This document shows, one piece after another, positions 22,660-50,432 of a stretch of DNA of 64,000 bases (its first letter is position 1; the number at the start of each line of letters is the position of its first letter). The notes under the pieces were generated by a model, which was not told the DNA's origin, did not search any database, and worked only from the letters and a program-made list of their open reading frames with translations. This DNA comes from Mesonia profundi (GTDB taxonomy: Bacteria > Bacteroidota > Bacteroidia > Flavobacteriales > Flavobacteriaceae), in the NCBI RefSeq assembly GCF_031085155.1, contig NZ_JAVHUL010000001.1, forward strand, positions 1 through 64,000. The letters run 5' to 3'. Made by a program: the position numbers and the translations under genes.

Positions 22660-25600
22660 TTACTCAATCTCTAAGCGAGTACCTTTGGTTTGTACCGAAA
22701 ATTCTGGTGCATACAAACTTTGAAGCTGAGTTGTTCCATTAGAGAAGTCTCCTTTATTATTCACTTTTAAGCTATATTCTAGCACATAAGTTCCCTTTCT
22801 TAGATTGTCAAAGAAAAAGTGGGTAGCCACATCTTTCGTGCTTTGGTAAAATGCCAATCCATCTTGGTATTTATATTTTGAAATTACATCTACAGGCTCT
22901 AATCCTGCCGCGCGCATATCTTTTAAGTGCATAAAGCTAAAGGACTCTTTGGCGTTGATTTCAAGTCTAACCACTACGATATCTCCTAAGTTTAAATTTT
23001 GTTCATTTATAGGCTCTAAGGAGCTTCCCTCATTGGTTTCTACTTTTTTATACAAGTTCTTCTGAATAGAAATTTGCTCTTGTTGATGCTCTTTTATTTG
23101 ATCTGACTCTTCAAAATATTGCCAATATAGTCCGCCGTATTGAGCAGTTTGAGATTTGTTATTAATATCAACTTGTCCCATTTGAGGCGTTATTTCTTCC
23201 GAAGAAAAAGAAGTTTTAAAGTACCCTGTTTTAGCTTCGGCAGTCTTGGGAGTAATTTTTTTATCTCCTATTTTAATGCTAGGAAATTCTGGTTCAGCTT
23301 TAGTTGTACCATAGGTTAAGAGTACATAAATCGCTTCGGTGGTGGCTTTGGTAGATTTCCAAGCTTCGGTTTTTTTGTTTCGCAACAACCATGTTTTTAA
23401 TTGACGAACGCTTTCTTCACTCTTATCAATTTCATTAAAAGCTTCCATTGCTAAGGCTTGGGTGGCAATGGCGTCATTAAACCAAGCATAACTCTTAGTT
23501 AACTCCTTCCAATACATGCCGTAGTTAGAATTGATGACCGCATTTTGTTTTAATGATTCCAGAATGTTCTTCGCAAGCTTTTTATCTTGAAAACGATGTG
23601 CGACCAAAGCAAGTGTAACTTTAGATTGTATGGATAAACTCAGCCATTCCTCTTGGTACTGCTTTAGTAATTCATCACTATACTTTTTTATTTCTGGTTT
23701 GGACTGCAGCGCATCAAAACTTCGGGCATAAAGATAATTAAGCTGAAGATTAGAATAATGTTCTCTCTCTATTTCTAAAAATTCATTATCGAGGTAAGTG
23801 ATGAGCTTATTTTTAATCTGCTGGTATTTGGATAAATCAGAAAGCCCCTGATTCATTTTTTCTAACCTTTCCATACTTATTAAAATGTGTAAGGAGATAG
23901 AAAGATTTTCTCTCCCTCCAGTAAACCAAGGAAAAGCACCAGAGCCTAATTGCATCTGCTCTAGTTTAACCAAGGTCTTTTGGGCTCTTTCACTAGCTTT
24001 TTTAGCCTCGAGTAAATCGGCAATTCTTTTTTGCTGCTCTTCTTGGGATTGCGCTGTTTTTAACCACGGCGTCTCTTGAATAAGAATATTTTTGAGTTCT
24101 TCATTCTTGTTAAGCTCAGAGATTAAGCTCCCATTTTTCTCCCATTCTTTTAAAACCGATTCAATCTCAGGATTCTGTTTGAGGAGAAATTCGGCGAGAT
24201 TGTTTGCGAAAAAACGTGCAAAAGTTTGTTCAGCACAGTCATAAGGATATTCTACCAAGTAAGGAAGCGCTTTAATAGCGGTCCAAATAGGGTTGCTGGT
24301 ATATTCAAAAATAAGTTGGTGATTTTCTAAAGTAGAAGACTTATTATTTTTAAGATTCTCTAAGCTAAACGACTTAGCTTCTTTGGGATTAAGCCAAATG
24401 GGTAAACTCTCGGTGATAAATATGCGATTGGTAAACACCGGAATCACATTTTCTTCTCCATCAGAAAAATTTCCTGCTTTGGCGACAATGCGATAACGTA
24501 CAGCAGATAATCCTTCAGGAATGGCTAGCTTCCAGTTCACTTCGGTATTTCCTTTAGAAGGAATGCTAAAATTCTTTACGGAAGAAGCATCCACGATAAG
24601 CGGGATTTTCTCTTGTGTGAGTTCATCGGTGAATTCTAATTGAATAATTCCGTTAAGGCTTTTATCGGCTAGATTATTCACCTTGGCGGAAATAATAATA
24701 CTATCCTTGCTTCTAAAAAAACGAGGGAAATTAGGAAGTATGTTGAGGTCTTTTTGCGTCATACTGGTTAAATCTAACTTCGCCTGATGCAGATTTTTAT
24801 CGTGAGCAAAGGCCTGAAACTTCCAACGCGTCAAGGCTTCCGGACTTTTAAACTTAAAGCTGATTTCCCCTTTCTTATTGGTTTTTAACTGCGGAAAGAA
24901 AAAAGCAGTTTCTTGCAAGTTGGTACGCGTTTGTACTTGCTGTAACTCTTTTTCGGCAGCTTTTGTAGTAATAATCATGACCCCGTTAGCTCCTTGTGAC
25001 CCATATAGTGCTGCACCGTTACTTCCTTTTAATAGATTTAAACTACTCATTTGAGCAGGAGTTAGTTTTTCTAAATCTTCTGCGCTTGCAATTTTTCCGT
25101 CAATCACAATGAGAGGAGATTTACTTTCTGAAACAGAACGACTTCCTCTTAAAACAATTTGAGAACCACCACCAGGAATAGATTTTATTTGTAATCCAGA
25201 GATCTTACCCGCTAAGTCTCTAACAACATCTGGATTGTTGGGATTCATTAAATCTTCAGTATTTATGATCTCATAAGAACTGGTAATTTGATCTTTGGAT
25301 CTTTTTATGCCTAAAGCAGTAACCACAACTTCTTCTAACGCATGCCCTGCTAGCATCACCACATTTAACTTTTGCGGTTGATCTACTTGTATGGCCTGCG
25401 TATCAAATCCTACATAAGAAATGATCAGAGTCATTTTTGGCGCATAATCTATTATAAATTTGCCATCAAAATCAGTTTGTGTACCCTTAGAAGTTCCTTT
25501 AACAATAATATTTACACCAGGAAGCGGTAAGCCTTCGTCATCTATGACTACGCCTACAACAACATTTTCGTGGGTTATATTTTTTTCAATCAAAGAAGAA

Positions 25601-28600
25601 ACATAAATTTTTTGATAGGTATCTGTATGAATGAAATGATATCCAAAATGCTTTAAATTAGTAGAAATCAACTTACCTAAAAATCGAAAGCGAAACGAAC
25701 TAAAGTTTCTTCTTCTGTTATAGGCTTCATAACTTACATTCGTATTCTGCTGTTTTAGATGAGGAAAAGCATAATAAATATCTTTATTTCTTTCTTGGTA
25801 TAATTGAATACTCCAATCGTGTGCTTTAAATTGATCTAGAGAAGCGTCGTACATGCTAGCCAACACTTCTGCCTCAGCAGCTTTGTTTTTTTGATCTAGT
25901 ACTTTTAACTCCCAAGTTTCTTCGTTTCCAGGTTTCAATTTGTTTTTAAAGCTCATTACTTCAAACTGAAGTGTCTTTTCCTTCTTTTTCTTTTTAGGAA
26001 TAGAAACAGATTTTGTTTGTTGCTGCGAAATTCCTTGAGTAGTAAAAGCGTATCTCAACCCCACATTTTCTATGTTTTTAGCAACTTCTATAGGAATTAT
26101 ATTATCTCCCTTTTGAAGCTGAATGTATTTTTTTAACTGAAGCTTCTCAGAATAATTCACTTCCAAAAGGATGTTTAAACCCTCTATTGGAGTGTAGAAA
26201 TGAGCTTGAATAAGATTCTTTTTTGTCTTCTTCTCCACTTTAGAAGAGAAGGTCACAAATTCTGTATTTTTTAAATTGTCTTCATCTTTCTTATTTCGCA
26301 ATTGAAGGGCTAGAGAAGTAGTAATGCTATCGCTTGCATCATCTTTTCCTTTAAACTGAAGTAAATATTCGCCAGAACTAAGCTCTTTCTTCCAGTCCTT
26401 GTAATCGAGTTCTATGCGGTCTTCAAAATTAAGGTCGATGGTTTTGACGATTTCTTTTTGCCAATGCGCTTTTACATCTAGACTATCGTAAGCAAAATAA
26501 GGATAATGTTGCAAGAATTTTTCTTTAGGAATGCGCTGTATTTCTGGGGTTGGCCAAGGACGTCTGTGAATGATTCGTTGAGGTGTTTGGTACTGATACA
26601 CCAACAGCTGTCCCGAAACTTTTATAGGTTTATCATTAAAATCTTTTGCCAGGAGCCTCAGTTTTTGGTCTTCTTGCAGCTGAACTTGTCGCGGAGATGT
26701 AATTTGTATTTCCCCGGCGTGATAACCAAACTTAAGTTGCTTCTTCTGGAATTGTGTTTCCCCATTAATATCGGTGATAGAAGCGGTGATAGAATAGGTA
26801 AATACAGGCTTAAACTTACGAGCAACCAGACTATCTGGAACCGCTTTAAAATCAACCGCAAACTCTCCTTTTTCGTTCGTAGAAACCGTTCCTGAAGCTA
26901 TTCTTGTGCTTTCTACCGGAATATACCTAGAGCTTTGTCTATATAGCGGATTGCGATTTAACGAGCGGTTAATTTCATACTTCACTTTTGCGTTACTAAG
27001 ATTACCGCCAAAGAAAGCAGCGGCTTTTCCCTTTAGTGAAACGGAGTCGTTTAAAACATAAGTAGAATCTAACTTTAGGAGCTCCACTTCAAAAGTAGGA
27101 CGCTTGTATTCTTCCACGCTTATCGTGGTGGATTGCTCGTAAAAATTGGAGCGATTGGTGAGAGATTCATCATCAAAAGCTTCGTCTACTATTAACCGGT
27201 AGCTTCCCGTAAGATTATTATCGGGAATAATCAATTCTCCAGCTGCCGATCCAAATTCATTGGTGGTGAGCTCTATTTCTTGTACGCTATTGTGATTAGG
27301 ATCAGTTAAAATGAGGGTTAGCTTTTCGTTGGGAACCACCTTTCTCTCGTTGTCATTTTCGTAAGAAAGAATGACTTTATAATAAAGAGGCTGTCCGGGT
27401 CGATAGATACTGCGATCGGTAAGAATATGGGATTTTATATTCCCAACGTTAGAGCTAGATCTTCTATGTTTTTTAGAGAACCTCACTTCAGTAGCTAAAC
27501 TGTCTTTCTCCTTAATTAATAAAGTATTTTCAGAATAGTATTTATTTTCTCCTTTTAAGATTACAAAACCTTCTTCATTGGTAACATAATTTTCCTTATT
27601 CTGCAAGTTTACTTGCGTTTTAGGAACAGATAATCCTGTTTCTCTGCTCTGTACATACAAATGCTGCTCTCTATCATAATCATACAAGTTGTAGGTTAAA
27701 TCGGTAACATATATCATATGATATAGATACATATCAGTATCCAAATCTGGATTTTTTTTAGTGCTAAAAAGACGTATGTACTGTCCGGGTTCTAAAGACC
27801 TAGATAGAAATTCTGTACTGTAAGCATAAAATGGATCTGGGTTTTGAAGATTGAAGATTTCTTGATGTATAGCTTCAGCAGTTTCTAACGTTTTAGTAAC
27901 AAGAGCATTTCTTTTTTTATAAGTATAAAAATTTACGGGAGCCTTGTATACTGAAACATATAACGTGTCGATGTTTTTGGTGGTAACCTGTGTTAAAATC
28001 GGCCGATTAGGTAAAGGGCTCTCTTGTGTCTCTACGGAAAATGTGCTGGAATAAATTTTCTTTTTTAGTTTTAAGACTTCTCGTTCAGGAATGGTGTTGG
28101 CGTCTAAGGAAAGAACGTATTCAGTCTGCTCTAATGCCTTTTCTGGATAATCGGGATGTTTTGCTTTATTGGCGTTTTCAATATAAAATTTGGCAAGATG
28201 ATAGGCAATCCATGCTTTTTCTTTTGCTGAAGTGGTATTTGCTAAAAAGCTTTTCAACGCTTTTAGGTATTCTGCTTGGTTATCTTCGTAATTTCCATGT
28301 TCTGCCAAGAACTTGAATCGGTCTAAAGTAATAATACAAACCGAAAGACTATTATTTTCTTTTACGTGAGCCTGCGTTAAGGCTTGATAGATTTTTAGGG
28401 TTTTATAGCGTTTGGAAGAGGTATTCTCTGGCTTGATAGTAAGTTGACTAAATTTTTGGGGAAGACTAAAGAAATTAGCTTCATCCAAAAGAAAACTGTT
28501 TTTAGAAAGACTGTAAGATTGTCTTGGTTCTATAGCTTTAAGATACCGAAATGCTAAAAGGTCTAAGAGGCTACTTCTATAACGACCATAATTATCTCCA

Positions 28601-29127
28601 TAAGAAAGAATTTCTTTATAGTCGCTTAGCGGAATTTTTATGAGCTCATCTTTATGCGTTAAAGATAACTCATAATAAGCATCAATATTTTCTTGAAAAG
28701 TTTCTTGATCCCAAGTGGTGAAAGCGCTCTTTATACTATCAATCTTGGTGCGATTTCGTATGCGGTAGCGATGTTGGTTGTAATATTGCGTTAAGCTTTC
28801 GGCTAGATAAGAAGATAAAATGTTCTTTACAGGAAAAGACTGTTTGCCTATTTCCTCCACAAAATCTTGATGCACCTCCTCTAGACTATTGTCTTTTAAA
28901 AGCAGTTTAAATTTTTCAACATATAAAAAGGCCTTTATAAACTGATGCGGATTATCTTTTCTGTCAGCCTTCTTTAAGATCTTCTCCGCTTTTTCATAAG
29001 CATCCATAAATAAGCCTGCTCTTTCATCCTGTTCTACTTTGTCCCACCATCGGTCAAATTTTTTCTGAGCAAAAACAGTCGACGAAATGAATAAGACGAG
29101 AGAAAGAAGGAGTAGTTTTTTGAGCAT
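22660..29127 (-). CDS. Alpha-2-macroglobulin-like protein with inserted TonB-receptor plug
   Basis: A 2155-residue exported protein (signal peptide LLLLSLVLFISSTVFAQ). Residues up to about 560 are mostly helical/unknown; near 570-590 HILTDRSIYRPGQPLYYKV marks the MG2-type macroglobulin domain, followed by further beta-sandwich domains. At about 1185-1270 a CarboxypepD_reg-like domain (GVVIDDEGLPLPGVNIIVKG) begins, and about 1270-1390 is a TonB plug-like domain (LEEVVVTALGIKRSK ... LNLLKGSNGAALYGSQGANG). Then A2M resumes: ALTRWKFQAFAHD, and CAEQ with the thioester Cys near residue 1631 inside YPYDCAEQTF, followed by the helical thioester domain and a receptor-binding-like end. Bacterial A2Ms trap attacking proteases. 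No pbpC lies next to it. It is one uninterrupted frame. Confidence 0.88.
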   Translation of the reverse strand: MLKKLLLLSLVLFISSTVFAQKKFDRWWDKVEQDERAGLFMDAYEKAEKILKKADRKDNPHQFIKAFLYVEKFKLLLKDNSLEEVHQDFVEEIGKQSFPVKNILSSYLAESLTQYYNQHRYRIRNRTKIDSIKSAFTTWDQETFQENIDAYYELSLTHKDELIKIPLSDYKEILSYGDNYGRYRSSLLDLLAFRYLKAIEPRQSYSLSKNSFLLDEANFFSLPQKFSQLTIKPENTSSKRYKTLKIYQALTQAHVKENNSLSVCIITLDRFKFLAEHGNYEDNQAEYLKALKSFLANTTSAKEKAWIAYHLAKFYIENANKAKHPDYPEKALEQTEYVLSLDANTIPEREVLKLKKKIYSSTFSVETQESPLPNRPILTQVTTKNIDTLYVSVYKAPVNFYTYKKRNALVTKTLETAEAIHQEIFNLQNPDPFYAYSTEFLSRSLEPGQYIRLFSTKKNPDLDTDMYLYHMIYVTDLTYNLYDYDREQHLYVQSRETGLSVPKTQVNLQNKENYVTNEEGFVILKGENKYYSENTLLIKEKDSLATEVRFSKKHRRSSSNVGNIKSHILTDRSIYRPGQPLYYKVILSYENDNERKVVPNEKLTLILTDPNHNSVQEIELTTNEFGSAAGELIIPDNNLTGSYRLIVDEAFDDESLTNRSNFYEQSTTISVEEYKRPTFEVELLKLDSTYVLNDSVSLKGKAAAFFGGNLSNAKVKYEINRSLNRNPLYRQSSRYIPVESTRIASGTVSTNEKGEFAVDFKAVPDSLVARKFKPVFTYSITASITDINGETQFQKKQLKFGYHAGEIQITSPRQVQLQEDQKLRLLAKDFNDKPIKVSGQLLVYQYQTPQRIIHRRPWPTPEIQRIPKEKFLQHYPYFAYDSLDVKAHWQKEIVKTIDLNFEDRIELDYKDWKKELSSGEYLLQFKGKDDASDSITTSLALQLRNKKDEDNLKNTEFVTFSSKVEKKTKKNLIQAHFYTPIEGLNILLEVNYSEKLQLKKYIQLQKGDNIIPIEVAKNIENVGLRYAFTTQGISQQQTKSVSIPKKKKKEKTLQFEVMSFKNKLKPGNEETWELKVLDQKNKAAEAEVLASMYDASLDQFKAHDWSIQLYQERNKDIYYAFPHLKQQNTNVSYEAYNRRRNFSSFRFRFLGKLISTNLKHFGYHFIHTDTYQKIYVSSLIEKNITHENVVVGVVIDDEGLPLPGVNIIVKGTSKGTQTDFDGKFIIDYAPKMTLIISYVGFDTQAIQVDQPQKLNVVMLAGHALEEVVVTALGIKRSKDQITSSYEIINTEDLMNPNNPDVVRDLAGKISGLQIKSIPGGGSQIVLRGSRSVSESKSPLIVIDGKIASAEDLEKLTPAQMSSLNLLKGSNGAALYGSQGANGVMIITTKAAEKELQQVQTRTNLQETAFFFPQLKTNKKGEISFKFKSPEALTRWKFQAFAHDKNLHQAKLDLTSMTQKDLNILPNFPRFFRSKDSIIISAKVNNLADKSLNGIIQLEFTDELTQEKIPLIVDASSVKNFSIPSKGNTEVNWKLAIPEGLSAVRYRIVAKAGNFSDGEENVIPVFTNRIFITESLPIWLNPKEAKSFSLENLKNNKSSTLENHQLIFEYTSNPIWTAIKALPYLVEYPYDCAEQTFARFFANNLAEFLLKQNPEIESVLKEWEKNGSLISELNKNEELKNILIQETPWLKTAQSQEEQQKRIADLLEAKKASERAQKTLVKLEQMQLGSGAFPWFTGGRENLSISLHILISMERLEKMNQGLSDLSKYQQIKNKLITYLDNEFLEIEREHYSNLQLNYLYARSFDALQSKPEIKKYSDELLKQYQEEWLSLSIQSKVTLALVAHRFQDKKLAKNILESLKQNAVINSNYGMYWKELTKSYAWFNDAIATQALAMEAFNEIDKSEESVRQLKTWLLRNKKTEAWKSTKATTEAIYVLLTYGTTKAEPEFPSIKIGDKKITPKTAEAKTGYFKTSFSSEEITPQMGQVDINNKSQTAQYGGLYWQYFEESDQIKEHQQEQISIQKNLYKKVETNEGSSLEPINEQNLNLGDIVVVRLEINAKESFSFMHLKDMRAAGLEPVDVISKYKYQDGLAFYQSTKDVATHFFFDNLRKGTYVLEYSLKVNNKGDFSNGTTQLQSLYAPEFSVQTKGTRLEIE

Positions 29128-38325: not shown

Positions 38326-39060
38326 TTACAAACGTTGTCTTACAATTTCGTATAAGATTGCACCACAAGCTACAGATACATTAAGAGAGGAAGTAGAGCC
38401 TAACATGGGTAATTTGGCTTTGTAGTCTACCATTTTAAGGATTCCAGAAGTGACTCCTTTTCCTTCACTTCCCATAATTAAAGCAAGAGGAAAATTTAAA
38501 TCAATATCATAGACGAGTTGATCTGTTTTCTCTGTTGCGGCTATGCTTTTTACGTCATAGGATTTCAAGAAAAACAAAGCATCTTTTAAATGGTCTACTT
38601 TACAAATAGGGATATTAAAAATGGCTCCCGTAGAAGTTTTTACGGTTTGTTCGTTAATAGAAGCAGTACCTTGTTTAGGAAGAATGATTCCTTGCGCTCC
38701 AATAGCTTCTGCAGTTCTAATAATGGCTCCTAGATTTCTTACATCGCTTATTTGGTCTAACAGAATAAAGATAGGAGTAGGGGTGCTTTTAAAAGCATTC
38801 TCTACCAAGTTTTCTATGTCTAAGATAGGAATGGGAGAGCAACTTGCAATAACACCTTGATGATTTCCATTTTTGGAAAGTTTGTTTAACTTCTCTAAGG
38901 GCACATAAGAAATCTGAATGTTAGCAGTTTTAGCAGCGTGTTCAATTTCTTTTATACCAGCACTGGAGATGGCTTTTTGAATAAACAGCTTATCGATATC
39001 TTGTTGGGTTTCTAATGCTTCTTTGACCGCATGAAGCCCGAAAATTTTTGAATCACTCAT
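38326..39060 (-). CDS. rlmB: 23S rRNA 2'-O-ribose methyltransferase RlmB (SpoU family)
   Basis: A 244-residue SPOUT-class methyltransferase with an N-terminal RNA-binding part and a knotted C-terminal domain. NLGAIIRTAEAIGAQGIILP, LIMGSEGKGVTSGIL and SLNVSVACGAILYEIVRQRL are motifs 1-3. The expected target is G2251 of 23S rRNA. Start chosen at ATG 39060 (MSDSKIFGLHAVKEAL); a -7 box lies only four bases upstream, so the mRNA may be nearly leaderless. Confidence 0.92.
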   Translation of the reverse strand: MSDSKIFGLHAVKEALETQQDIDKLFIQKAISSAGIKEIEHAAKTANIQISYVPLEKLNKLSKNGNHQGVIASCSPIPILDIENLVENAFKSTPTPIFILLDQISDVRNLGAIIRTAEAIGAQGIILPKQGTASINEQTVKTSTGAIFNIPICKVDHLKDALFFLKSYDVKSIAATEKTDQLVYDIDLNFPLALIMGSEGKGVTSGILKMVDYKAKLPMLGSTSSLNVSVACGAILYEIVRQRL

Positions 39061-39064
39061 GCTC

Positions 39065-39072
39065 CAAAAGTA
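39065..39072 (-). promoter_or_regulatory. Possible -7 box directly upstream of rlmB
   Basis: TACTTTTG on the minus strand fits TAnnTTTG and ends four bases before the rlmB ATG. A TTG lies 23 bases further upstream, outside the usual spacing. Confidence 0.4.
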
Positions 39073-39103
39073 ATAAAAAAAGCAGCCTTTAATAACAATA
39101 TAT

Positions 39104-39137
39104 AATAAAAAAACCACCTCTTTTAGGAGGTGGTTTT
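39104..39137 (-). terminator. Intrinsic terminator of the susCD operon
   Basis: An 11-bp perfect stem (39110-39120 with 39127-39137, loop TTTTAG) containing ACCACCTC / GAGGTGGT. Read leftwards it is followed by TTTTATTAT, placing it 26 bases after the last lipoprotein gene stop. Confidence 0.85.
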
Positions 39138-39162
39138 CATAAAGTCTTAGACTATATAAAAC

Positions 39163-40014
39163 TTATGGTAGTTGACTAATGGTATAATCACTTCCAGTTT
39201 TAACAATCTTTAAAAGCCTGTAAGTATCTGTTTCTAAACTAGGAGATACATCTGCTGTGTACTGCTCTAAGTTTTCATTATCAAATACTCCTTCAAAGCT
39301 AACAGTTTCTCCATTTGGTTTATGTAACCCAAAGTTAAATTCAAATTGCTCTTCAATTAACTCGTAAGGATCAATACCTACGTAGTAAGTACCATCAGCA
39401 TCTGTATTTAAAATAAGTACTTCAACTTCAGGAACATCTCCAGTAGCTACGAAAGAATGCTCAGAACCTTCAGAGTCATAGGCAACAACATCGATATCTG
39501 TTGCTTGGTCTTCATTCCAGTTCATACCAACAGTCAAACCTTCATTACTGTTTACATTTAATAATTCGTAAGTGTAAACTTTAGTTGAAAGATCATTCTC
39601 TAAGTTAGCTGCATTGGTGGCATTCGTAGGCTCAATAATAATTTTAGCCGTCAACGTTTCTTGAGGAAAACCATCATCAGGAAAACTAACTGTAATTTCA
39701 GTAGAAGTAGTATAGGCTGCAATTTTCGTCGTTCCTAATACTACGTCTTGTCCAACTCTAATCCCTTCTGAACTGCCTTCCGCTAAGGTAGCTTTAAACT
39801 GAGTAGGGTATGCAAAGGGCTTATCTAATTCAATTACGTAAGTAATCATTGAACCTTGCTCTATTTGACCTTCAGAAACATCTGCCGTCACGGTGGCTTC
39901 TGGTAAAAATTCTGTGGATCCTATTGGCTCTGCATCCTCATCTTTACGACTATCGCAAGAGAAAAGAAGAATACCGACAAATAGTACTAATATTGATTTA
40001 TATGTGTTTTTCAT
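39163..40014 (-). CDS. SusCD-associated lipoprotein (unknown)
   Basis: A 283-residue lipoprotein (LVLFVGILLFSC, followed by DSRKDEDAEP). The Lys plus acidic run just after the Cys resembles the lipoprotein export signal that sends Bacteroidetes lipoproteins to the cell surface. The middle (VTADVSEGQIEQGSMITYVIELD) looks like a beta-sandwich, and the C-terminal half (MNWNEDQATDIDVVAYDSEG) is acidic and possibly metal-binding. Family not recognised. Last gene of the susC operon, 18 bases after the gene before it; may help capture the substrate. Confidence 0.8.
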   Translation of the reverse strand: MKNTYKSILVLFVGILLFSCDSRKDEDAEPIGSTEFLPEATVTADVSEGQIEQGSMITYVIELDKPFAYPTQFKATLAEGSSEGIRVGQDVVLGTTKIAAYTTSTEITVSFPDDGFPQETLTAKIIIEPTNATNAANLENDLSTKVYTYELLNVNSNEGLTVGMNWNEDQATDIDVVAYDSEGSEHSFVATGDVPEVEVLILNTDADGTYYVGIDPYELIEEQFEFNFGLHKPNGETVSFEGVFDNENLEQYTADVSPSLETDTYRLLKIVKTGSDYTISQLP

Positions 40015-40032
40015 AATTAAAATTTGTTTTTA

Positions 40033-40824
40033 TTATTGTTTAATCATTGTAAAAGACAAATTCTCGTAGCCCGCTACTCCTTCTACACTAATAGATGTCC
40101 ACTCTATATTTCCATTTTCAGCAACAAAGCCTACTCCATGAATTGGGTTAGCATCGTCAAAAAGCCATCCTGTAATGGTTAATTCGTCACATACATCAGA
40201 GAAATTGGTTGTATAACCAGAACCTGGGAAACCAGGAAGAGTACTCATTTCATAAACACCACTTTCAACTTGGGTAATCACATGTGGCTGTGGGCCTGAT
40301 GAATATTCTACTAAGTAAGTACCAGCTAAATCTGAGAAACAAAGGTATTTAATAGTTATCTCTATTTGTCTCGTTCTACCATTAGCGATTGCGCCGTTAC
40401 CACCTGTTACATTAGTTACATTTAAGATCAATACTGGATCAGTTTCTAATGGAGGCTCAAAACCAGCCGTTAAAATAGTAATAGGGAAACTTTTAATTAA
40501 GTTTTGCCCTGGTTCTAAAGTTACAGAGGTAGTACTTAACTCATAGTTAACTCCCGCCTCGGCAGTAGAAGCGGCATCAACAGAAATATCAAAAGTTACA
40601 TTTTCAGTAATTTCGTTTTTTGTAGGCCCTACTACTTCAGTAGCTACCATATAGGTTTTATCTTCACCATCTGCCGTCACACTGGCATTTACTTTGCCAT
40701 CGGTGAACCCAACTAAGTTAGGTCCTTGGTCATAATCATCTATCGCTGTATCATCATCTACAAAACAAGAAGTCATTGCGAGAGATGCAAAAATCACGAT
40801 TAAAAATTTATTTATATTTTTCAT
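40033..40824 (-). CDS. SusCD-associated lipoprotein, Calx-beta/DUF1735-like
   Basis: A 263-residue lipoprotein (FASLAMTSC followed by FVDDDTAIDD, an acidic surface-export-like signal). Residues about 40-155 (VNASVTADGEDKTYMVATEV ... YELSTTSVTLEPGQNLIKSF) have the layout of immunoglobulin-like domains (DUF1735/Calx-beta type) found in proteins beside SusD. The C-terminal part begins YLCFSDLAGTYLVEYSS. Located 13 bases after susD, so translated from the same mRNA; likely binds substrate at the surface. Confidence 0.8.
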   Translation of the reverse strand: MKNINKFLIVIFASLAMTSCFVDDDTAIDDYDQGPNLVGFTDGKVNASVTADGEDKTYMVATEVVGPTKNEITENVTFDISVDAASTAEAGVNYELSTTSVTLEPGQNLIKSFPITILTAGFEPPLETDPVLILNVTNVTGGNGAIANGRTRQIEITIKYLCFSDLAGTYLVEYSSGPQPHVITQVESGVYEMSTLPGFPGSGYTTNFSDVCDELTITGWLFDDANPIHGVGFVAENGNIEWTSISVEGVAGYENLSFTMIKQ

Positions 40825-40837
40825 CTTTTATTTTTTT

Positions 40838-42346
40838 TTAGTTTGCCCAGAAAATTTTATCTGAAAACTCATTTGGTTGGTTTGGTACATTAGCAGCATT
40901 TCCAACTCTTTCAGAAGCTGGGTAAGATAATCTTACAGGTCTGTCTGCATTCGTTTGGTTTAGTGCTACAGGTACGTTAGCAGGATATCCAGTTCGGTTG
41001 TACTCAACCCAAGATTCCCATCCATTAGTTCCATTTAACGCGATCCATTTTTGGGTAATAATAGCTTCAATAGGATCACTACTACTCCAACCTACATTTG
41101 TTTTACTTTGTCCAAAATACGTTGCAGCATCATCATCTGTAGAACCATCTTCATTAGCATCTGCACCTAAGAAATTAAATGAAGCAGTAATTGCTTGCTC
41201 GTATAAAGCTTGTGCATTTCCACTTAAGTAACCTCTTTGAGCTGCTTCAGCTTGTAAGAATAGACTCTCTGCAGCTAACATGATAGGAGAAGATTGTGTA
41301 GAACCTTTCAATAGCCCAGGACCAATATTAGAAACGTCTGCAGCTTCAAATCCGTCAGGATAGTTTGTTAAACCTTGAGGTGTTCCTTTATGACCACCAG
41401 CTGGTTCTTCATAAAGTCTATCAATTCGAGGATCACTTGCATTTTGTAAGAAATCGATTACAAACTCAGAAGCACAAGTGGCTAAATTATTGTTAACCGC
41501 TTCTCCAGCAATATTTTCTCCGAAATCCTGAAAAAATGGATTTTGCTTACCATCATCATTCGAATAACCAGGGTTAACTAAAGCATCTTCTAATAAGAAA
41601 CCGCTTCCTTCAGCAACGATATTGTTCATATTCTCTTGAATATAAGCTTGCTTGCTGCTCATTCCTGATTGACGAACTAAGATTCTCAATTTTAAAGTAT
41701 TGGCAAATTGGATCCAAGAAGTCATATTACCGTTAAATACGATATCACCAGAACCTGGTACTTGATCATCTGAATCTGCCTCCTTAATAGTGGTTATAGC
41801 TTCATCTAATTTGATAATTAAATCATCATAAATAGCTTCTGCACTATCATATGCAGGTGTTGCAGCATTTTCTCGTTGTAAAGCTTCAAAATAAGGAATG
41901 TCTCCGTAACCATCTACTAACATTTGAAAATGGTAAGCTTTCATAATTTCTGCTATAGCAGTAAAATTATCGGTAGTTTCATCACCTGCATTGATTACTT
42001 CTTGATACGTTTTTAACGTATTTATATAACTGTAATCAAAAATTCTATCGTAAAAATTAGAGCCCATAATATAACCAAACTCATCATCATACCAAGAATA
42101 ACCATCAGTCTCACTCCAGTTAGCCATCATGATGTTACCAAAGGTATTAGTGTATCTACCCCCAACACCTAGGTACATGTTTCTAACCGTGTAGTTTTGA
42201 GCCGTTGGTAAGATCAAATCTGGAGATACCTCTGTAGGGTTGTTAGGGTCTACATTGACATCTAAGTAATTATCGTTATCACAAGAACTAATAGCGAGTG
42301 CTAATAGCGATACTTGTACGTATTTAATATATTTTTTCATTTTCAT
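40838..42346 (-). CDS. SusD/RagB-family outer-membrane lipoprotein (SusD_2 type)
   Basis: A 502-residue surface lipoprotein that caps the SusC channel and binds nutrient. The lipobox LLALAISSC is followed by DNDNYLDVNVDPNNPTEVSPDL, the typical start of the SusD-like_2 group. TPR-like helices follow, with NTLKLRILVRQSGMSS and MLAAESLFLQAEAAQRG (the latter a strongly conserved SusD segment). Seven bases downstream of susC. The SusD_2 group is often seen away from glycan loci and no glycoside hydrolase is near, so the substrate may be peptide or other material; this is inference. Confidence 0.93.
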   Translation of the reverse strand: MKMKKYIKYVQVSLLALAISSCDNDNYLDVNVDPNNPTEVSPDLILPTAQNYTVRNMYLGVGGRYTNTFGNIMMANWSETDGYSWYDDEFGYIMGSNFYDRIFDYSYINTLKTYQEVINAGDETTDNFTAIAEIMKAYHFQMLVDGYGDIPYFEALQRENAATPAYDSAEAIYDDLIIKLDEAITTIKEADSDDQVPGSGDIVFNGNMTSWIQFANTLKLRILVRQSGMSSKQAYIQENMNNIVAEGSGFLLEDALVNPGYSNDDGKQNPFFQDFGENIAGEAVNNNLATCASEFVIDFLQNASDPRIDRLYEEPAGGHKGTPQGLTNYPDGFEAADVSNIGPGLLKGSTQSSPIMLAAESLFLQAEAAQRGYLSGNAQALYEQAITASFNFLGADANEDGSTDDDAATYFGQSKTNVGWSSSDPIEAIITQKWIALNGTNGWESWVEYNRTGYPANVPVALNQTNADRPVRLSYPASERVGNAANVPNQPNEFSDKIFWAN

Positions 42347-42353
42347 TTTTTTT

Positions 42354-45300
42354 TTAGAATTCTACATTAATGTTAAACCCGTATGTTCTTGTAGGAGGTG
42401 TTTGAAAATAACCACCAAGACCTACTGCATTTGAATTAGCCGTATTGTTATTGAATTCTGGATCTGCATATCTGTTTTCTTTTGGTAACCAAGTTAATAA
42501 GTTGGTACCAACTACTCCAAGACTAACTTTGTTTAAAGGAGTGTTCTTTAAGAAGTCAGAAGGCACAGAGTAGCGTATGGCAAGCTCTCTCAATTTAACT
42601 GCAGTTGCATCTTTTACATAATTTTCTGCAATATTGTTGTAATGGTTGGTCCAATAGTTTTGTCTACCACCTGTAATTGGAATATTGGTGTTAGTTACAT
42701 ATTGAGGGTTACCATTAGCATCTGTTCCACTTTGGTATACAGAATTAGGAATTACGAAATCTTGACGATTAGATGAAACACTAGCCATAGATCTTCCTGT
42801 AAATTCTAACTGGTGACCTAACTGTGAGTAATAAACGTGTCCTGTTCTATAATCCCAAGTAGTAGATAAAGTAAAGCCTTTATATCTTACGTTAGACGTT
42901 AAGCCAATGATATAGTCTGGTGTAGTTTTACCTAAACTTACCACATCTCCAATAATTGGATTACCAGTGCTTTGGTCTACCACAACACTTCCTTGATCAT
43001 CTCTTACATAAGAACTACCTTTAATTTGAGGGAAAGCCTCTCCTTCAGAAGCATAGATCCCACCATCTGCAAATGCTTGTACAATTGCTTGATCTGTTTG
43101 CTCTGAAACTTCATTTACTACAGTTTCATAAGCACTAAAGTTGATGTTTGCATCCCAAGAGAAATCAGATTCTGGGAAGCTCAATATTTTAGCTCCTAAA
43201 GTTAATTCTACTCCTTTTCCTTCTAATTCACCAATGTTGGTTAATAGAGAGCTTGCTGCAGAAGTAACAGAAGGTGTTACCTGCGTAAGAAGGTCTGTAG
43301 TTGTCGTTTTAAATACAGAGGCGTCAAGCGTTAAACGATTCTTTAAGAAGGCGAAGTTAGCACCAAATTCTGTAGTGTTAATTTTCTCCTTTTTAAGATC
43401 AGAATCTGTAGCTGTTCCTTGAATGGTAAAACCATTAGTATTAGCAAAAGGGAAATATGCTGGCTGTAAATAATTTTCAACCGCTTCATAAGGTTTTAAA
43501 TCATTATAAACCGTAGAGTTATTTGCGGTTATTTTTAAGTAATTTAAAACATTTCCTTTAATACTAGGAATAGCATCTGTTGCGATAAAAGAAAGTCCTA
43601 CCCCTGGGTAGAAATAACTATTTTCATCACTAGGTAAACTAGAAGTGTAGTCATAACGACCGCTCACATCTAAGAATAAATAATCGTTGTATCCAAAATT
43701 TAACTGTCCTAAGTAACCGTATGTTCTGTACGTTTCTTCATTTACTGCAGCTTGTAATTGTCCTGCACTGTTAGAAATGTCGTAAAAACCATCAACACTT
43801 ATATTATTAGCAGTAATTTGACTTCTTCTGTCTTCACTAGTAAAATTAGTAGCACCTAATAAAGCATCTAAAGAGAAAGAATCAGATAAGTCAAATTCTC
43901 CATTAGCAATAAAAGTAGAAGTGTACTGTAAATACTGTCGCTCATAATCGGTTACAAACGAAGTTGATGCGTTTGGTCTAGAGTAAGTGATATCATCATT
44001 AAAGGATAACCCATTTCTATACTCTTTACCAATAGTGCTTAGAGTATTTATACCCATTCTACCTGTAAAGCTTAACCATTCATTAGCTTGCCATTCTGCA
44101 GAAATATTACTGGTGAACCTCCCGCTCTTGTCATTATCACGGTTGTTGTCAACTGCCCAGAAAGGGTTCTCGTAATATCCGTTGTAAAAACCATCAGGAT
44201 TAGCAAACTTGTTGTTTCTCCAGTCACGGTAGTTAGATAATGGAATGTTGTTAGGAGTGTTTAAGATAAACCAATATAATGGACGATCTTGTGCTCCAAT
44301 TTGTTGACCTGATACGCTGGTATCATCTCTGAAATAACTTGTATTTACAGATAGTGTCAAATCACCTAAAGTTTTGGATCCATTAAATCTAAACGTGTTT
44401 CTGTTGTACTTGTCACCAGGAACAATTCCTTTTGTGTCTTGCTCTCCAATAGAAAGGTAAAAACTACTGGTGTCATCACCTCCACTAATAGAAACGGTGT
44501 TTTGTAAAGTTACACCCGTATCGTAAAAGTTTTTTAAGTTGTCCTGAACAGGAGCGTAAGGTACAGACTGAAAACTTCCGTCTAAAAGGGTAGGCCCAAT
44601 AGGTCTAACCACACCATCAAAACGTGGTCCCCAGTTAGTGTTTTCAATTCTTTCGTACTGTGTTTGCCATCCAATACCATATTCAGATTGAAACTCTGGC
44701 ATATAAGCAATTTCTTGAAAAGTTGTAGTAGAGTTAATTGCTACTTTAAACTTTTCAGTAGAACCTTTCTTAGTTGTTACAACCAAGGCACCGTTTGCGG
44801 CATCACTACCATAAAGTACAGCAGCTGTAGCACCTTTTAAGATGTTTACAGACTCCACGTCATTTGGGTTTAATGCGTTAAAAGCACCTTCAGAAGCAAT
44901 ACTACCGTCAATAACGACAAGAGCTGTACTGTTTCCACTAATAGAACGCAGACCTCTTAAGACAATTTTTGTCCCAGGATTAACTCCGTTGTTAGTAGTG
45001 TTAATTTGTAGTCCGGCAACTTTTCCAGTTAAACCTTGTGCCACGTTTTGCGGCTGCACTACATTAAGTTGTTCTGCATCAACCTCTTCAGATTGGTAGG
45101 ACAACTGTTTCTTTTGTCTTTTAATACCAAAAGAAGTTACAACTACTTCATCAAGGGTGTTCCCTGCTTCCATAGTAACGTCGTAAGAGCTTGCCGCGCC
45201 TACAGTAACCTCTTGGGTTTCAAAACCAATGTAGCTGAACACTAATGTTGAGCCATTTGATGCCTCCAAATTGTAAATACCATCAAAATCAGTTTGTGTA

Positions 45301-45455
45301 CCTGACGAAGTTCCTTTGATAATAATGTTAACTCCTGGTAACGGGAGACCTTGATCATCGGTCACCGTCCCGGAAACTGTTTTTTCTTGTGCAAACGTAA
45401 TTTGCACGACAAACGCTAGAAGTAGCGTTAGAATTCCACTAAACTTTGTTCTCAT
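42354..45455 (-). CDS. SusC/RagA-family TonB-linked outer-membrane transporter
   Basis: A 1033-residue TonB-dependent transporter. Signal peptide (LLLAFVVQITFAQ), CarboxypepD_reg-like domain at about 26-105 (GTVTDDQGLPLPGVNIIIKG), then the plug (about 105-225: LDEVVVTSFGIKRQKKQL ... LKGATAAVLYGSDAANGALV) and a 22-strand barrel ending FNINVEF with terminal Phe. Works with SusD to import a bound ligand with energy from TonB-ExbBD. Part of its N-terminal DNA is closely similar to the insert in the macroglobulin-like gene at 24.9-25.6 kb. Confidence 0.95.
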   Translation of the reverse strand: MRTKFSGILTLLLAFVVQITFAQEKTVSGTVTDDQGLPLPGVNIIIKGTSSGTQTDFDGIYNLEASNGSTLVFSYIGFETQEVTVGAASSYDVTMEAGNTLDEVVVTSFGIKRQKKQLSYQSEEVDAEQLNVVQPQNVAQGLTGKVAGLQINTTNNGVNPGTKIVLRGLRSISGNSTALVVIDGSIASEGAFNALNPNDVESVNILKGATAAVLYGSDAANGALVVTTKKGSTEKFKVAINSTTTFQEIAYMPEFQSEYGIGWQTQYERIENTNWGPRFDGVVRPIGPTLLDGSFQSVPYAPVQDNLKNFYDTGVTLQNTVSISGGDDTSSFYLSIGEQDTKGIVPGDKYNRNTFRFNGSKTLGDLTLSVNTSYFRDDTSVSGQQIGAQDRPLYWFILNTPNNIPLSNYRDWRNNKFANPDGFYNGYYENPFWAVDNNRDNDKSGRFTSNISAEWQANEWLSFTGRMGINTLSTIGKEYRNGLSFNDDITYSRPNASTSFVTDYERQYLQYTSTFIANGEFDLSDSFSLDALLGATNFTSEDRRSQITANNISVDGFYDISNSAGQLQAAVNEETYRTYGYLGQLNFGYNDYLFLDVSGRYDYTSSLPSDENSYFYPGVGLSFIATDAIPSIKGNVLNYLKITANNSTVYNDLKPYEAVENYLQPAYFPFANTNGFTIQGTATDSDLKKEKINTTEFGANFAFLKNRLTLDASVFKTTTTDLLTQVTPSVTSAASSLLTNIGELEGKGVELTLGAKILSFPESDFSWDANINFSAYETVVNEVSEQTDQAIVQAFADGGIYASEGEAFPQIKGSSYVRDDQGSVVVDQSTGNPIIGDVVSLGKTTPDYIIGLTSNVRYKGFTLSTTWDYRTGHVYYSQLGHQLEFTGRSMASVSSNRQDFVIPNSVYQSGTDANGNPQYVTNTNIPITGGRQNYWTNHYNNIAENYVKDATAVKLRELAIRYSVPSDFLKNTPLNKVSLGVVGTNLLTWLPKENRYADPEFNNNTANSNAVGLGGYFQTPPTRTYGFNINVEF

Positions 45456-48323: not shown

Positions 48324-50432
48324 ATGGCACAAAGAGATTTAAAATATACAAGAAATATTGGTATTGCAGCGCATATTGATGCTGGAAAAACAACCACTAC
48401 CGAGCGTATTTTGTTTTATACAGGGGTAAATCATAAGATAGGTGAGACGCACCAAGGTGCTGCTACTATGGACTGGATGGAGCAGGAGCAGGAAAGAGGT
48501 ATTACAATTACTTCTGCTGCAACGCACTGTAAATGGATGTATAAAGATACAGAGTTTACAGTAAATATTATCGATACTCCAGGTCACGTTGACTTTACAG
48601 TAGAGGTAGAGCGTTCTTTGCGTGTATTGGATGGTGTTGTTGCTTTGTTTAGTGCGGTAGATGGTGTGGAGCCACAGTCTGAAACCGTTTGGAGGCAGGC
48701 AGATAAATATAAAGTACCTAGATTAGGATTTGTAAATAAAATGGACCGTCAGGGTGCAGATTTCTTTAATGTGTGTAAGCAAGTTAGAGAGATGCTTGGA
48801 GGTAATCCAGTACCATTGCAGGTTCCTATTGGTGATGAGTTAGATTTTAAAGGTGTAGTTGATTTGATTTCCAAAAAAGCAGTTGTTTGGGATGATGATA
48901 ACTTCGGGATGACTTATAGTGAAATTGAGATTCCTGCAGAACTTTTAGAAGATGTAAATAAATACAGAGCTGAGCTAGTTGAAGCTGTGGCAGAATATGA
49001 TGAAACCTTAATGGAGAAATTCTTTGAGGATGAAAGTTCTATTACAGAAGATGAAATTATTGCAGCTTTAAGAGCAGCTACTATAGATATGTCTATCATA
49101 CCTATGATGTGTGGTTCTGCTTTTAAAAATAAAGGAGTTCAGGCGATGTTAGATGCTGTAATGCGTTACTTGCCTTCTCCGGTAGATATTGAGGCTATTG
49201 AAGGAACTAATCCTGATACAGGTGCCGAAGAATCTCGTAAGCCAAATGTAGACTCTCCTTTTTCTGCATTAGCATTTAAAATTGCTACCGATCCTTTTGT
49301 AGGTCGTTTAGCTTTCTTTAGAACGTATTCAGGTTCTTTAGATGCTGGGTCTTATGTTTTGAATAATAGATCTGGTAAAAAAGAAAGAATTTCTAGAATG
49401 TATCAAATGCACGCTAACAAGCAAGAGCCTATTGATAGAATTGAGGCTGGAGATATTGGAGCAGCAGTTGGGTTTAAAGATATTAAAACGGGAGATACTT
49501 TGACCGATTTAGATCATCCTATTGTTTTAGAATCTATGACTTTTCCAGCACCAGTAATTGGTATTGCGGTAGAGCCAAAGACTAAGGCAGATGTGGATAA
49601 GATGGGGATGGCTTTAGCTAAATTAGCAGAAGAAGATCCAACTTTCGTGGTGAAAACGGACGAGATTTCAGGTCAAACTATTATTTCTGGTATGGGAGAA
49701 TTGCATATCGAAATTCTAGTAGATCGTTTAAAAAGGGAATTTAAAGTAGAGGTGAGTGAGGGTGAGCCTCAGGTAGAGTACAAAGAAGCGGTAACTAAGA
49801 CTACAGAGCATAGAGAGGTTTATAAGAAACAATCTGGTGGTCGTGGTAAGTTTGCTGATATTGTATTTGAAATGGGTCCTGTTGATGAGGATTTCGAAGG
49901 AACTGGTTTGCAGTTTGTAGATCAAATTAAAGGTGGACGTGTTCCAAAAGAGTTTATCCCATCTATAGAGAAAGGATTTACTCAAGCGATGAAAAACGGA
50001 CCTTTGGCTGGTTTCCAGATGGATAGTTTAAAAGTTACTTTAAAGGATGGTTCTTTTCATCCTGTAGATTCAGATCAACTATCTTTCGAGTTGGCAGCAA
50101 AAATGGGTTATAAAGCAGCGGCAAAAGGAGCTGGTGCAATTATTCTTGAGCCAATGATGAAGAATGAGGTGGTAACTCCAGAGGAAAATATGGGGGATAT
50201 CGTAGGTGACCTTAACAAACGAAGAGGTCAAGTTAACGATATGTCAGATAGATCTGGGGCGAAAGTAATTAAAGCATTAGTGCCTTTGGCAGAAATGTTT
50301 GGTTATGTAACTACGCTAAGAACTTTATCTTCGGGTAGAGCAACTTCTACAATGGAATTTTCTCACTTTGCTGAAACTCCTTCAAATATTTCTGAAGAAG
50401 TGATCAAAGCAGCAAAAGGAACTAACGACTAA
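48324..50432 (+). CDS. fusA: Elongation factor G
   Basis: A 702-residue translational GTPase that drives tRNA-mRNA translocation. AHIDAGKT at 16-23 is the P-loop, [14 protein letters not shown] switch [21 protein letters not shown] the G3 region and [11 protein letters not shown]4. Domains II-V follow at full length. In many bacteria tuf follows; here rpsJ follows after 11 bases. Confidence 0.98.

What the first reader, a model, noticed from the sequence alone, without database searches (positions are those of the whole stretch)
24940..25590. SusC-type regulatory and TonB-plug domains inside an alpha-2-macroglobulin
Residues about 1185-1390 of the 2155-residue protein read as CarboxypepD_reg plus TonB receptor plug (GLPLPGVNIIVKG, VVVTALGIKRSK, GAALYGSQGANG), with macroglobulin domains on both sides and the CAEQ thioester motif kept downstream. 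A plug normally fills a TonB-dependent barrel, and no barrel is present. The insert might tether the trap to a SusC-like barrel or to TonB, or link protease trapping to uptake of the trapped material. Seen: the domains and single frame. Inferred: the function. Similar fusions may exist in other Bacteroidetes; I cannot check.
Basis: partly seen in the sequence, partly recalled or inferred. Interest (0 to 1): 0.78.

Follow-up and report, generated by a model that had tools for sequence, protein, structure and literature searches.

The report
Protease trap baited with SusC parts
A large bacterial protein of the protease-trapping macroglobulin family carries, where such traps hold their protease bait, the front end of the cell's own kind of outer-membrane nutrient importer (SusC), and related bacteria have rebuilt this bait from SusC pieces several times, which suggests the trap is baited with a copy of a self protein.

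Summary
The 2155-aa ORF (22660-29127, minus strand) is an intact alpha-2-macroglobulin (A2M) with CAEQ thioester. Residues ~1190-1392 are a SusC N-terminal module: NTE, TonB box (LEEVVV) and plug, no barrel. They sit at the A2M bait position, just before the MG7 part. In the family this bait turns over fast: of 65 orthologs read from a sample of about one genome per genus, 24 carry SusC-type domains; 27 of the other 41 carry SusC short motifs, mostly in an order reversed from SusC; 14 carry neither. None of 25 orthologous A2Ms from other Bacteroidia families reaches the threshold. Inserts are not one clade (AU p 4e-9). In Mesonia the plug matches the plug of the same genome's SusC of the neighbouring type; outside the genus this match is weak. 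Two pairs show the cassette replaced between near-identical flanks. Best reading: a protease trap whose bait imitates the cell's own SusC (integrated decoy), inferred, untested. TonB docking is the main functional rival, tolerated junk the dull one. The structure job never returned.

The parts
22660..29127 (-). A2M gene, 2155 aa, signal peptide (MLKKLLLLSLVLFISSTVFAQ) without lipobox; adjacent ORFs on the other strand on both sides
   Evidence: signal peptide and lipobox judged by eye
27163..27432 (-). MG2 domain (residues 566-655)
   Evidence: E 1.2e-16
24922..25833 (-). bait region as cut here: from the end of the MG6 motif MYDASLD to NLQETAFFFP (residues 1099-1402, 304 aa)
   Evidence: place supported by the TEP1 alignment
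25321..25554 (-). SusC N-terminal extension (NTE, CarbopepD_reg_2, residues 1192-1269)
   Evidence: E 5.7e-18
25321..25338 (-). TonB box LEEVVV (residues 1264-1269)
   Evidence: sequence; the tested Ton box of Bt1763 is VDEVVV (PMC7782687 passages)
24979..25296 (-). TonB plug domain (residues 1278-1383)
   Evidence: E 6.2e-10; TIGR04056 2.9e-61 over 1190-1405
24961..25044 (-). SusC/RagA signature region with GAALYGSQGANG (TIGR04057, residues 1362-1389)
   Evidence: E 6.1e-10, below the curated cut-off
24640..24909 (-). A2M domain PF00207 (residues 1407-1496), first A2M domain after the bait
24226..24237 (-). thioester motif CAEQ (residues 1631-1634)
   Evidence: aligned to GCGEQ of TEP1
22702..23073 (-). 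bMG10 domain (residues 2019-2142)
   Evidence: E 5.7e-28
42354..45455 (-). complete SusC (1033 aa, NTE, plug, barrel) 13 kb away; 45% identical to the insert over NTE and plug, 47% over TonB box and plug
40838..42346 (-). SusD partner of that SusC
   Evidence: SusD-like_2 2.6e-77

Best explanation
It is a signal-peptide-bearing alpha-2-macroglobulin with a thioester motif, whose bait region has been rebuilt from the N-terminal module of a SusC importer. I think it works as a protease trap with a self-mimicking bait (an integrated decoy): the bait shows the NTE, TonB box and plug that a SusC shows to the periplasm; a protease that attacks SusC, or is drawn to its TonB box or plug, cuts the bait instead; the cut lets the bait leave the central channel, the A2M collapses and the thioester fixes the protease. 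Shown by sequence: the domains, their place at the bait position, the kept thioester motif, the recurrent SusC-type content of this bait in the family, more than one origin of the inserts, the match to the own SusC in Mesonia, purifying selection on the insert in the two close pairs examined. Inferred: the periplasmic site, that bait cleavage triggers trapping here, that SusC-directed proteases exist, and that the likeness to SusC is selected.
For: Place: window residues 1398-1645 align to TEP1 602-852 through the thioester, with the insert just before; in cleaved ECAM 20 residues of the bait (Arg923-Leu942), in a domain found within MG8, are not seen (PMC4498604 passages); the genome's second A2M has PF07703 (bait-region domain) before its PF00207. 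Baits can be replaced, and which protease cuts them follows the inserted substrate sequence (PMC8267569 abstract; PMC9352918 abstract). SusC content: 40 of 95 baits hold SusC-type domains (NTE alone is not proof of SusC, but 10 of 11 NTE-only baits also score for the TonB box); other families gave only weaker or few hits (listed under evidence against); 35 of 55 domain-free baits hold at least one SusC motif (TonB box 26, LxGKVAGV 16, IRIRG 9; 0.28 expected each), at about 160, 200 and 45 times the density of the rest of the same A2Ms; in a second sample 27 of 41 (22 of 32 not identical to a bait of the first set); 0 of 25 orthologs from 13 other families of the class. Recurrence: 25 changes of domain state as the fewest on the A2M tree; inserts not one clade, AU p 4.4e-9. 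Self-match: Mesonia, 9 pairs, 0 of 50,000 permutations as high; with pairs left out p 2e-5 to 0.0016; the insert of G007 lies in a clade (SH-aLRT 100) with the SusCs of G007 and G010, 80 for the pairing with its own; that of Urechidicola pairs with a SusC of its own genome (95). dN/dS about 0.22 (0.04/0.18) and 0.14 (0.03/0.22) in two close pairs of inserts. The CxEQ motif is found behind the bait in 94 of 98 orthologs.
Against: No protease, cleavage or complex was tested, and there is no structural model. A folded plug may be a poor bait. 20 of 95 and 14 of 65 baits show no SusC trait at all. Motif counts are not independent, since the sequences are related. The self-match is clear only in Mesonia and two or three other genomes; in 21 other pairs p is 0.004, carried by the long baits (10 pairs, p 0.015), and the short baits show none (11 pairs, p 0.34); own SusC ranks 20th or lower of 65 for 7 of 21 inserts. 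For the window's own insert the SusC of G003 is slightly closer than its own (49 against 47%). Matching could come from old gene conversion without function. Other domain hits in the baits, not examined further: CooC_C in 12 (best 6e-5), TTR_TEN1-4 in 5, five Pfam families in one each; BamP in 21 (best 6.5e-8), Ca_tandemer in 3, GldJ in one (1.3e-6), AutTranAdhPGAsTpgA in one, besides other TonB-receptor models; I take those in NTE-bearing baits for the NTE fold, unchecked. 5 of 16 Mesonia genomes have no match to the A2M and the thioester Cys is lost in some orthologs, so it is dispensable.
Confidence: 0.42

Rival explanations
1. TonB docking or force trigger: the TonB box in the bait is gripped by TonB, which holds the trap under the outer membrane or, by pulling the bait out of its channel, springs the trap with proton-motive force and without a protease.
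For: The TonB box is the commonest of the three motifs (26 of 55 and 20 of 41 domain-free baits; 10 of 11 NTE-only and 19 of 22 NTE+plug baits); it resembles the tested SusC box VDEVVV, whose deletion or alanine change gave growth defects (PMC7782687 passages); A2M is triggered when the bait leaves a central channel (PMC9352918 abstract).
Against: Does not explain the other SusC motifs (LxGKVAGV, IRIRG), plug-only baits without a scored TonB box (4 of 7), or the match of the plug to the own SusC. In PMC9352918 elongating the bait without breaking it did not trigger collapse (abstract).
Confidence: 0.2
2. Tolerated recombination: the bait accepts almost any sequence, SusC genes are very numerous in these genomes, and their N-terminal pieces are inserted by chance and persist with no role of their own.
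For: High turnover (25 changes); replacement of the cassette between near-identical flanks in two pairs (G010/G012 and two Winogradskyella); 15 to 59 matches to a SusC N-terminus in each of 30 genomes; 20 of 95 baits without any SusC trait.
Against: SusC-type domains dominate, with no other domain family of like support in 95 baits; the short motifs lie in reversed order in 9/9 and 7/7 baits (first set) and 8/10 and 6/6 (second set; 6/8 and 5/5 among its new sequences), which one insertion does not give; none of 25 orthologs in other families of the class (their SusC numbers were not counted); dN/dS well under 1 in two pairs.
Confidence: 0.23
3. Spare plug or barrel tether: the plug binds inside an empty SusC barrel, so that the trap sits behind open channels; matching to the own SusC reflects fit to the barrel.
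For: Self-match in Mesonia; the window's insert covers the whole plug; dN/dS under 1 in two pairs of inserts.
Against: A plug is normally built into its barrel in cis; 66 of 95 orthologs have no plug match, yet many of these keep SusC motifs.
Confidence: 0.08
4. Released signal, like the anaphylatoxin domain of complement: cutting the bait frees the NTE-TonB box-plug fragment, which acts on TonB or a regulator.
For: A folded domain as the susceptible region has a precedent: the introduction of PMC9352918 names the ANA domain of complement factors.
Against: Absent or reduced to short motifs in most orthologs (55 of 95 without domain); no receptor known.
Confidence: 0.07

Closest known systems
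Bacterial alpha-2-macroglobulins (ECAM/YfhM, Salmonella A2M; type I with thioester)
   Same: MG2, PF00207, thioester motif, bMG10, signal peptide; bait between MG domains
   Different: No lipobox (by eye), no penicillin-binding protein gene among the adjacent ORFs (partly by eye), no PF07703 match, bait made of a SusC module; the same genome has a second A2M with PF07703 followed by a PBP1C-like gene
SusC/RagA TonB-dependent transporters (TIGR04056)
   Same: NTE, TonB box and plug in the same order; 202 residues aligned to solved SusC 8aa4 with five small gaps
   Different: No beta-barrel, no adjacent SusD, embedded in another protein
Complement factors with the anaphylatoxin domain as the susceptible region
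   Same: A folded domain at the place of the A2M bait (PMC9352918 introduction)
   Different: Unrelated domain; here gained and lost many times and derived from a transporter
M56/BlaR1-like peptidase with half-plug repeats (G012, L250)
   Same: Half-plug modules without a barrel in a protease-type protein
   Different: Different host protein; named by eye from HEKIH and the repeats, no family search run
Integrated decoys (plant NLR receptors; recalled)
   Same: A copy of an attacked self protein built into a sensor
   Different: Analogy only; the attacker is unknown here

Membership tests
Alpha-2-macroglobulin (type I, thioester) | PF00207 and MG domains over cut-off | tested here: met
   MG2, A2M, bMG10 over gathering scores
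Alpha-2-macroglobulin (type I, thioester) | CxEQ thioester motif at the right place | tested here: met
   C1631-A-E-Q, aligned to TEP1 GCGEQ; found in 94 of 98 orthologs
Alpha-2-macroglobulin (type I, thioester) | cleavable bait that triggers the trap | not testable with these tools
   Place fits; no biochemistry
Alpha-2-macroglobulin (type I, thioester) | Pfam bait-region domain PF07703 | tested here: not met
   No PF07703 match at E up to 1; the second A2M of the genome has it. Not every A2M need match this model, so this lowers, but does not decide, membership in the ECAM type
SusC/RagA transporter | NTE, TonB box and plug | tested here: met
SusC/RagA transporter | beta-barrel; TIGR04056 over cut-off | tested here: not met
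   208 bits against 368 needed, profile 3-220 of 981: not a SusC
Integrated decoy | domain homologous to a self protein | tested here: met
   homology to the own SusC
Integrated decoy | that self protein is attacked, and the attacker acts on decoy and target | not testable with these tools
   no candidate protease known

The most novel reading that the evidence does not exclude
Flavobacteria run an arms-race immune trap in the periplasm: an A2M whose bait is a living copy of the cell's own SusC importer, refreshed from SusC genes by recombination and, where no whole domain is kept, by short SusC motifs in new order, so that attackers of SusC (proteases, or agents that ride on TonB) are caught covalently.
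Probability: 0.33. Interest if true: 0.92.

Novelty: new variant of a known kind. Interest (0 to 1): 0.8.

Why it matters
The bait decides what an A2M catches, and I know of no bacterial A2M whose natural target is established (recalled, not searched for as such). A bait that is repeatedly rebuilt from one kind of self protein points to what the target normally attacks and makes the question testable: find what cuts or binds SusC N-termini. If the reading holds it would be a bacterial case of an integrated decoy, and a use of TonB box and plug outside transporters.

Tried and rejected
Chance or assembly artefact: rejected, the fusion is in ten other genomes of the genus. A single old insertion followed by decay: rejected for the NTE+plug inserts by the AU test (long branches present) and made unlikely for the short motifs by their reversed order, although descent from one ancestral short bait that already had them is not excluded. 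Recent gene conversion from the SusC: not supported, dS 1.1 to 2.8 between A2M and own SusC in six pairs, undefined in a seventh; old conversion stays open. Lateral transfer of the Tenacibaculum cassette: suggested by dS 0.22 in the insert against 0.78 in the flank, not upheld by sliding windows, where the flanks close to the bait are nearly as similar. The neighbouring SusC as part of the BAM machinery: the BamP model hits P0001 only over residues 9-117, far under its cut-off, as it hits 21 baits; PMC12611786 (passages) names BamA, D, G, H, M and P. Link of the A2M to BAM: the word macroglobulin was not found in the main text of PMC12611786 and PMC12578637. That the neighbouring SusC equals the abundant Fjoh_0403 complex of PMC12611786 (passage) was a recalled lead about gene place; one paper search did not confirm it. 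A profile of 18 short-bait orthologs matched no solved structure at 0.001. Paper searches for such a fusion (listings of 5 to 20 titles each, none) showed none; the library holds open-licence papers only, and database annotation may well show these architectures without comment.

Rows dropped or of doubtful weight: of 80 named loci (itself the best 80 of at least 589) 73 gave a bait (L049, L062, L106, L113, L114, L119, L126 failed the motif cut); with 25 from the genome search that made 98, less 3 duplicates 95. Of 68 family-sample genomes with a match 65 gave a bait (G030, G401, G453 not; further copies in G393 and G481 not taken). Of 40 SusC stretches fetched 35 were read; the 45 SusC segments behind the HMMs and motif scores hold nine genes twice with different ends. 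Of 30 SusC loci, 29 entered the tree (L233 not). In one search row L035 used a badly cut SusC segment and was kept. G006 (near copy of G001) and G013 (broken gene) were left out of the Mesonia permutation. In two of the nine Mesonia pairs (G007, G008) A2M and SusC lie on different contigs, so neighbourhood is not shown there; the SusC was taken by its like N-terminus. The 25 control baits are from the 30 best-scoring loci; L193 and L199 have weakly TonB-box-like stretches under the threshold (by eye).

Full report
The gene. ORF 22660-29127 on the minus strand reads 2155 aa in one frame. It starts with a signal peptide without a lipobox (by eye), and the adjacent ORFs on both sides are on the other strand. 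hmmscan finds MG2, CarbopepD_reg_2, Plug, A2M (PF00207) and bMG10 over their cut-offs; TIGR04056, the SusC/RagA model, matches residues 1190-1405 with E 2.9e-61 but only its positions 3-220 of 981. Against solved structures the best match of the insert is a SusC (8aa4), 202 residues aligned to residues 33-234 with five gaps of one or two residues. The TonB box LEEVVV stands between NTE and plug as in SusC; in Bt1763 deletion or alanine change of the box VDEVVV gave growth defects, and the NTE is PF13715 (PMC7782687, passages).

Where the insert sits. The A2M part after the insert (1398-1645) aligns with mosquito TEP1 602-852, thioester on thioester, and the conserved stretch RTNLQETAFFFP follows the insert directly. 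Upstream lies the MG6 end MYDASLD. From the end of the insert to the thioester are about 240 residues; in ECAM, bait residues 923-942 are not seen after cleavage (PMC4498604 passages; the like distance to its thioester is recalled). The genome's second A2M, on contig 4, has the Pfam bait domain PF07703 before its PF00207 and a PBP1C-like gene next to it. The insert therefore fills most of the bait region. No model confirms this: the structure job was accepted but unfinished.

Spread. The genus is Mesonia (a contig of same-genus genome G013 equals in length and place a contig titled uncultured Mesonia). The A2M is found in 11 of 16 genomes of the genus, the window's own included; in all 11 SusC-like sequence stands in the bait, in ten in an unbroken gene, in G013 in a gene cut into several ORFs. 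One genome (G012) lacks the NTE. In the class, 151 of 295 sampled genomes have a match, not all of them surely orthologs; in the family, 68 of 130.

The bait of the family is made of SusC. The first set holds 95 non-redundant baits: 25 from the genome search (22 of the window's family, 3 of other families of the order) and 70 from named records, mostly Flavobacteriaceae by title. 22 carry NTE and plug, 11 NTE only, 7 plug only, 55 neither (own HMMs from 45 SusC segments). Pfam and NCBIfam give 33 CarboxypepD_reg, 29 Plug, 54 TIGR04056 of 95; other hits are fewer or weaker (CooC_C in 12, BamP in 21, GldJ in one and some others). Among the 55 without a domain, 35 hold at least one of the SusC motifs above a threshold that shuffled baits pass in 0.5%: TonB box 26, LxGKVAGV 16, IRIRG 9, expected 0.28 each; two further plug motifs gave 0 and 1. 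The same scan finds 4, 2 and 5 hits in the remaining 106,433 residues of these A2Ms, and 8, 3 and 5 in 112,510 residues of other ORFs of the same loci. In SusC the order is TonB box, LxGKVAGV, IRIRG. In these baits it is turned round: LxGKVAGV before the TonB box in 9 of 9, IRIRG before the TonB box in 7 of 7. A second sample, about one genome per genus, gave 65 baits: 10 NTE+plug, 12 NTE only, 2 plug only, 41 neither; of the 41, 27 hold a motif (22 of the 32 not identical to a bait of the first set), order turned in 8 of 10 and 6 of 6 (6 of 8 and 5 of 5 among the new). So 20 of 95 and 14 of 65 show no SusC trait. As a control, 25 orthologous A2Ms from 13 other families of the class (family codes) have baits of 139-177 aa and none of the motifs or domains at the same thresholds.

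Recurrent origin. On a tree of the A2M part behind the bait (99 rows, quick method) the fewest changes of domain state are 25 (13 for plug, 18 for NTE; the tree has a few long branches). A tree of 22 inserts and 65 SusC segments needs 6 changes of label, 5 forced by starred branches; forcing the inserts into one clade costs 168 log units, AU p 4.4e-9. Two pairs show the swap directly: G010 and G012 are 89-100% identical in DNA in the windows on both sides, while the SusC cassette is 55-79% and the NTE is missing in one; two Winogradskyella are 87-97% identical on both sides with 53-67% inside.

Match to the own SusC. A complete SusC with SusD and two lipoprotein-like genes lies 13 kb away in the window. 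The SusC with the same N-terminus is on the contig of the A2M in 9 of the 11 Mesonia genomes that have the A2M (not in G007 and G008) and the best SusC is near the A2M in 16 of 30 further genomes. In nine Mesonia genomes the plug of the bait is closer to the plug of the own SusC than expected: 0 of 50,000 permutations reach the observed value, and it holds with the strongest pairs left out (p 2e-5 to 0.0016). The insert of G007 lies with the SusCs of G007 and G010 (support 100; 80 for its own; 80% identical plug), that of Urechidicola with a SusC of its own genome (95). For the window itself own SusC is second (47% against 49% for that of G003), and fifth of 65 among the SusC segments held. 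Outside the genus the match is weak: all 21 pairs p 0.004, long baits p 0.015 (10 pairs), short baits p 0.34 (11 pairs); own SusC is first for 5 of 21 inserts with 0.5 expected, in the first five for 13, but 20th or lower for 7. Between A2M and own SusC dS is 1.1-2.8 in six pairs, so exchanges, if any, are old. In two close pairs the insert has dN/dS of about 0.22 and 0.14, as a kept domain would.

Mechanism. A2Ms are sprung by a cut in the bait, which lets the bait leave a central channel (PMC9352918, abstract); the bait can be replaced by glycine-serine repeats, and substrate sequences put into it set which protease is caught (PMC8267569, abstract). A bait made of SusC thus should catch what cuts SusC. 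This explains why whole modules, half modules and loose motifs of SusC come back in this place, and why the thioester motif is kept in 94 of 98. It does not say which protease. TonB docking explains the TonB box but not the rest. Tolerated junk explains turnover but not the dominance of one source, the turned order or the low dN/dS. I hold the decoy at 0.42.

Novelty. Both parts are known; a bait built of, and in one genus matched to, a self transporter was not found in the paper searches made (listings only, open-licence library). Filed as a new variant of a known kind.

Noticed in passing
L250 1540-3996 (G012 contig 2) and L249 999-2168 (window genome contig 31): M56/BlaR1-like peptidase (HEKIH) with several half-plug repeats (such as DPLILIDGK...YGEKGKNGVIEIT), and a related ORF near a contig end: barrel-less SusC plug modules in another protease-type protein. 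Named by eye.
   Followed up: partly
G013 contig 6, L034: The Mesonia MAG copy of the A2M is broken into several ORFs, with an ORF like an IS3-type transposase (by eye) close by, in a genus in which 5 of 16 genomes have no match to the A2M.
   Followed up: no
window 38326-45455: SusC, SusD and two genes without Pfam match that look like lipoproteins lie between rlmB and a POTRA-domain protein, with an EF-G gene at 48324-50432. The plug of this SusC differs much in type between species of the genus although signal peptide and NTE look conserved (by eye).
   Followed up: partly
A2M in L039, L043, L044, L045: Thioester Cys lost in these orthologs; L043 and L044 (another family of the order) still have a TonB box in the bait.
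   Followed up: no
G000 contig 4, L046: Second A2M (1856 aa, with PF07703) followed by a gene with transglycosylase, transpeptidase and BiPBP_C domains.
   Followed up: yes
The genome search: The Plug family search of the own genome listed 21 matches but not the A2M plug, although hmmscan gives it 6e-10: the loose first look can miss domains.
   Followed up: no
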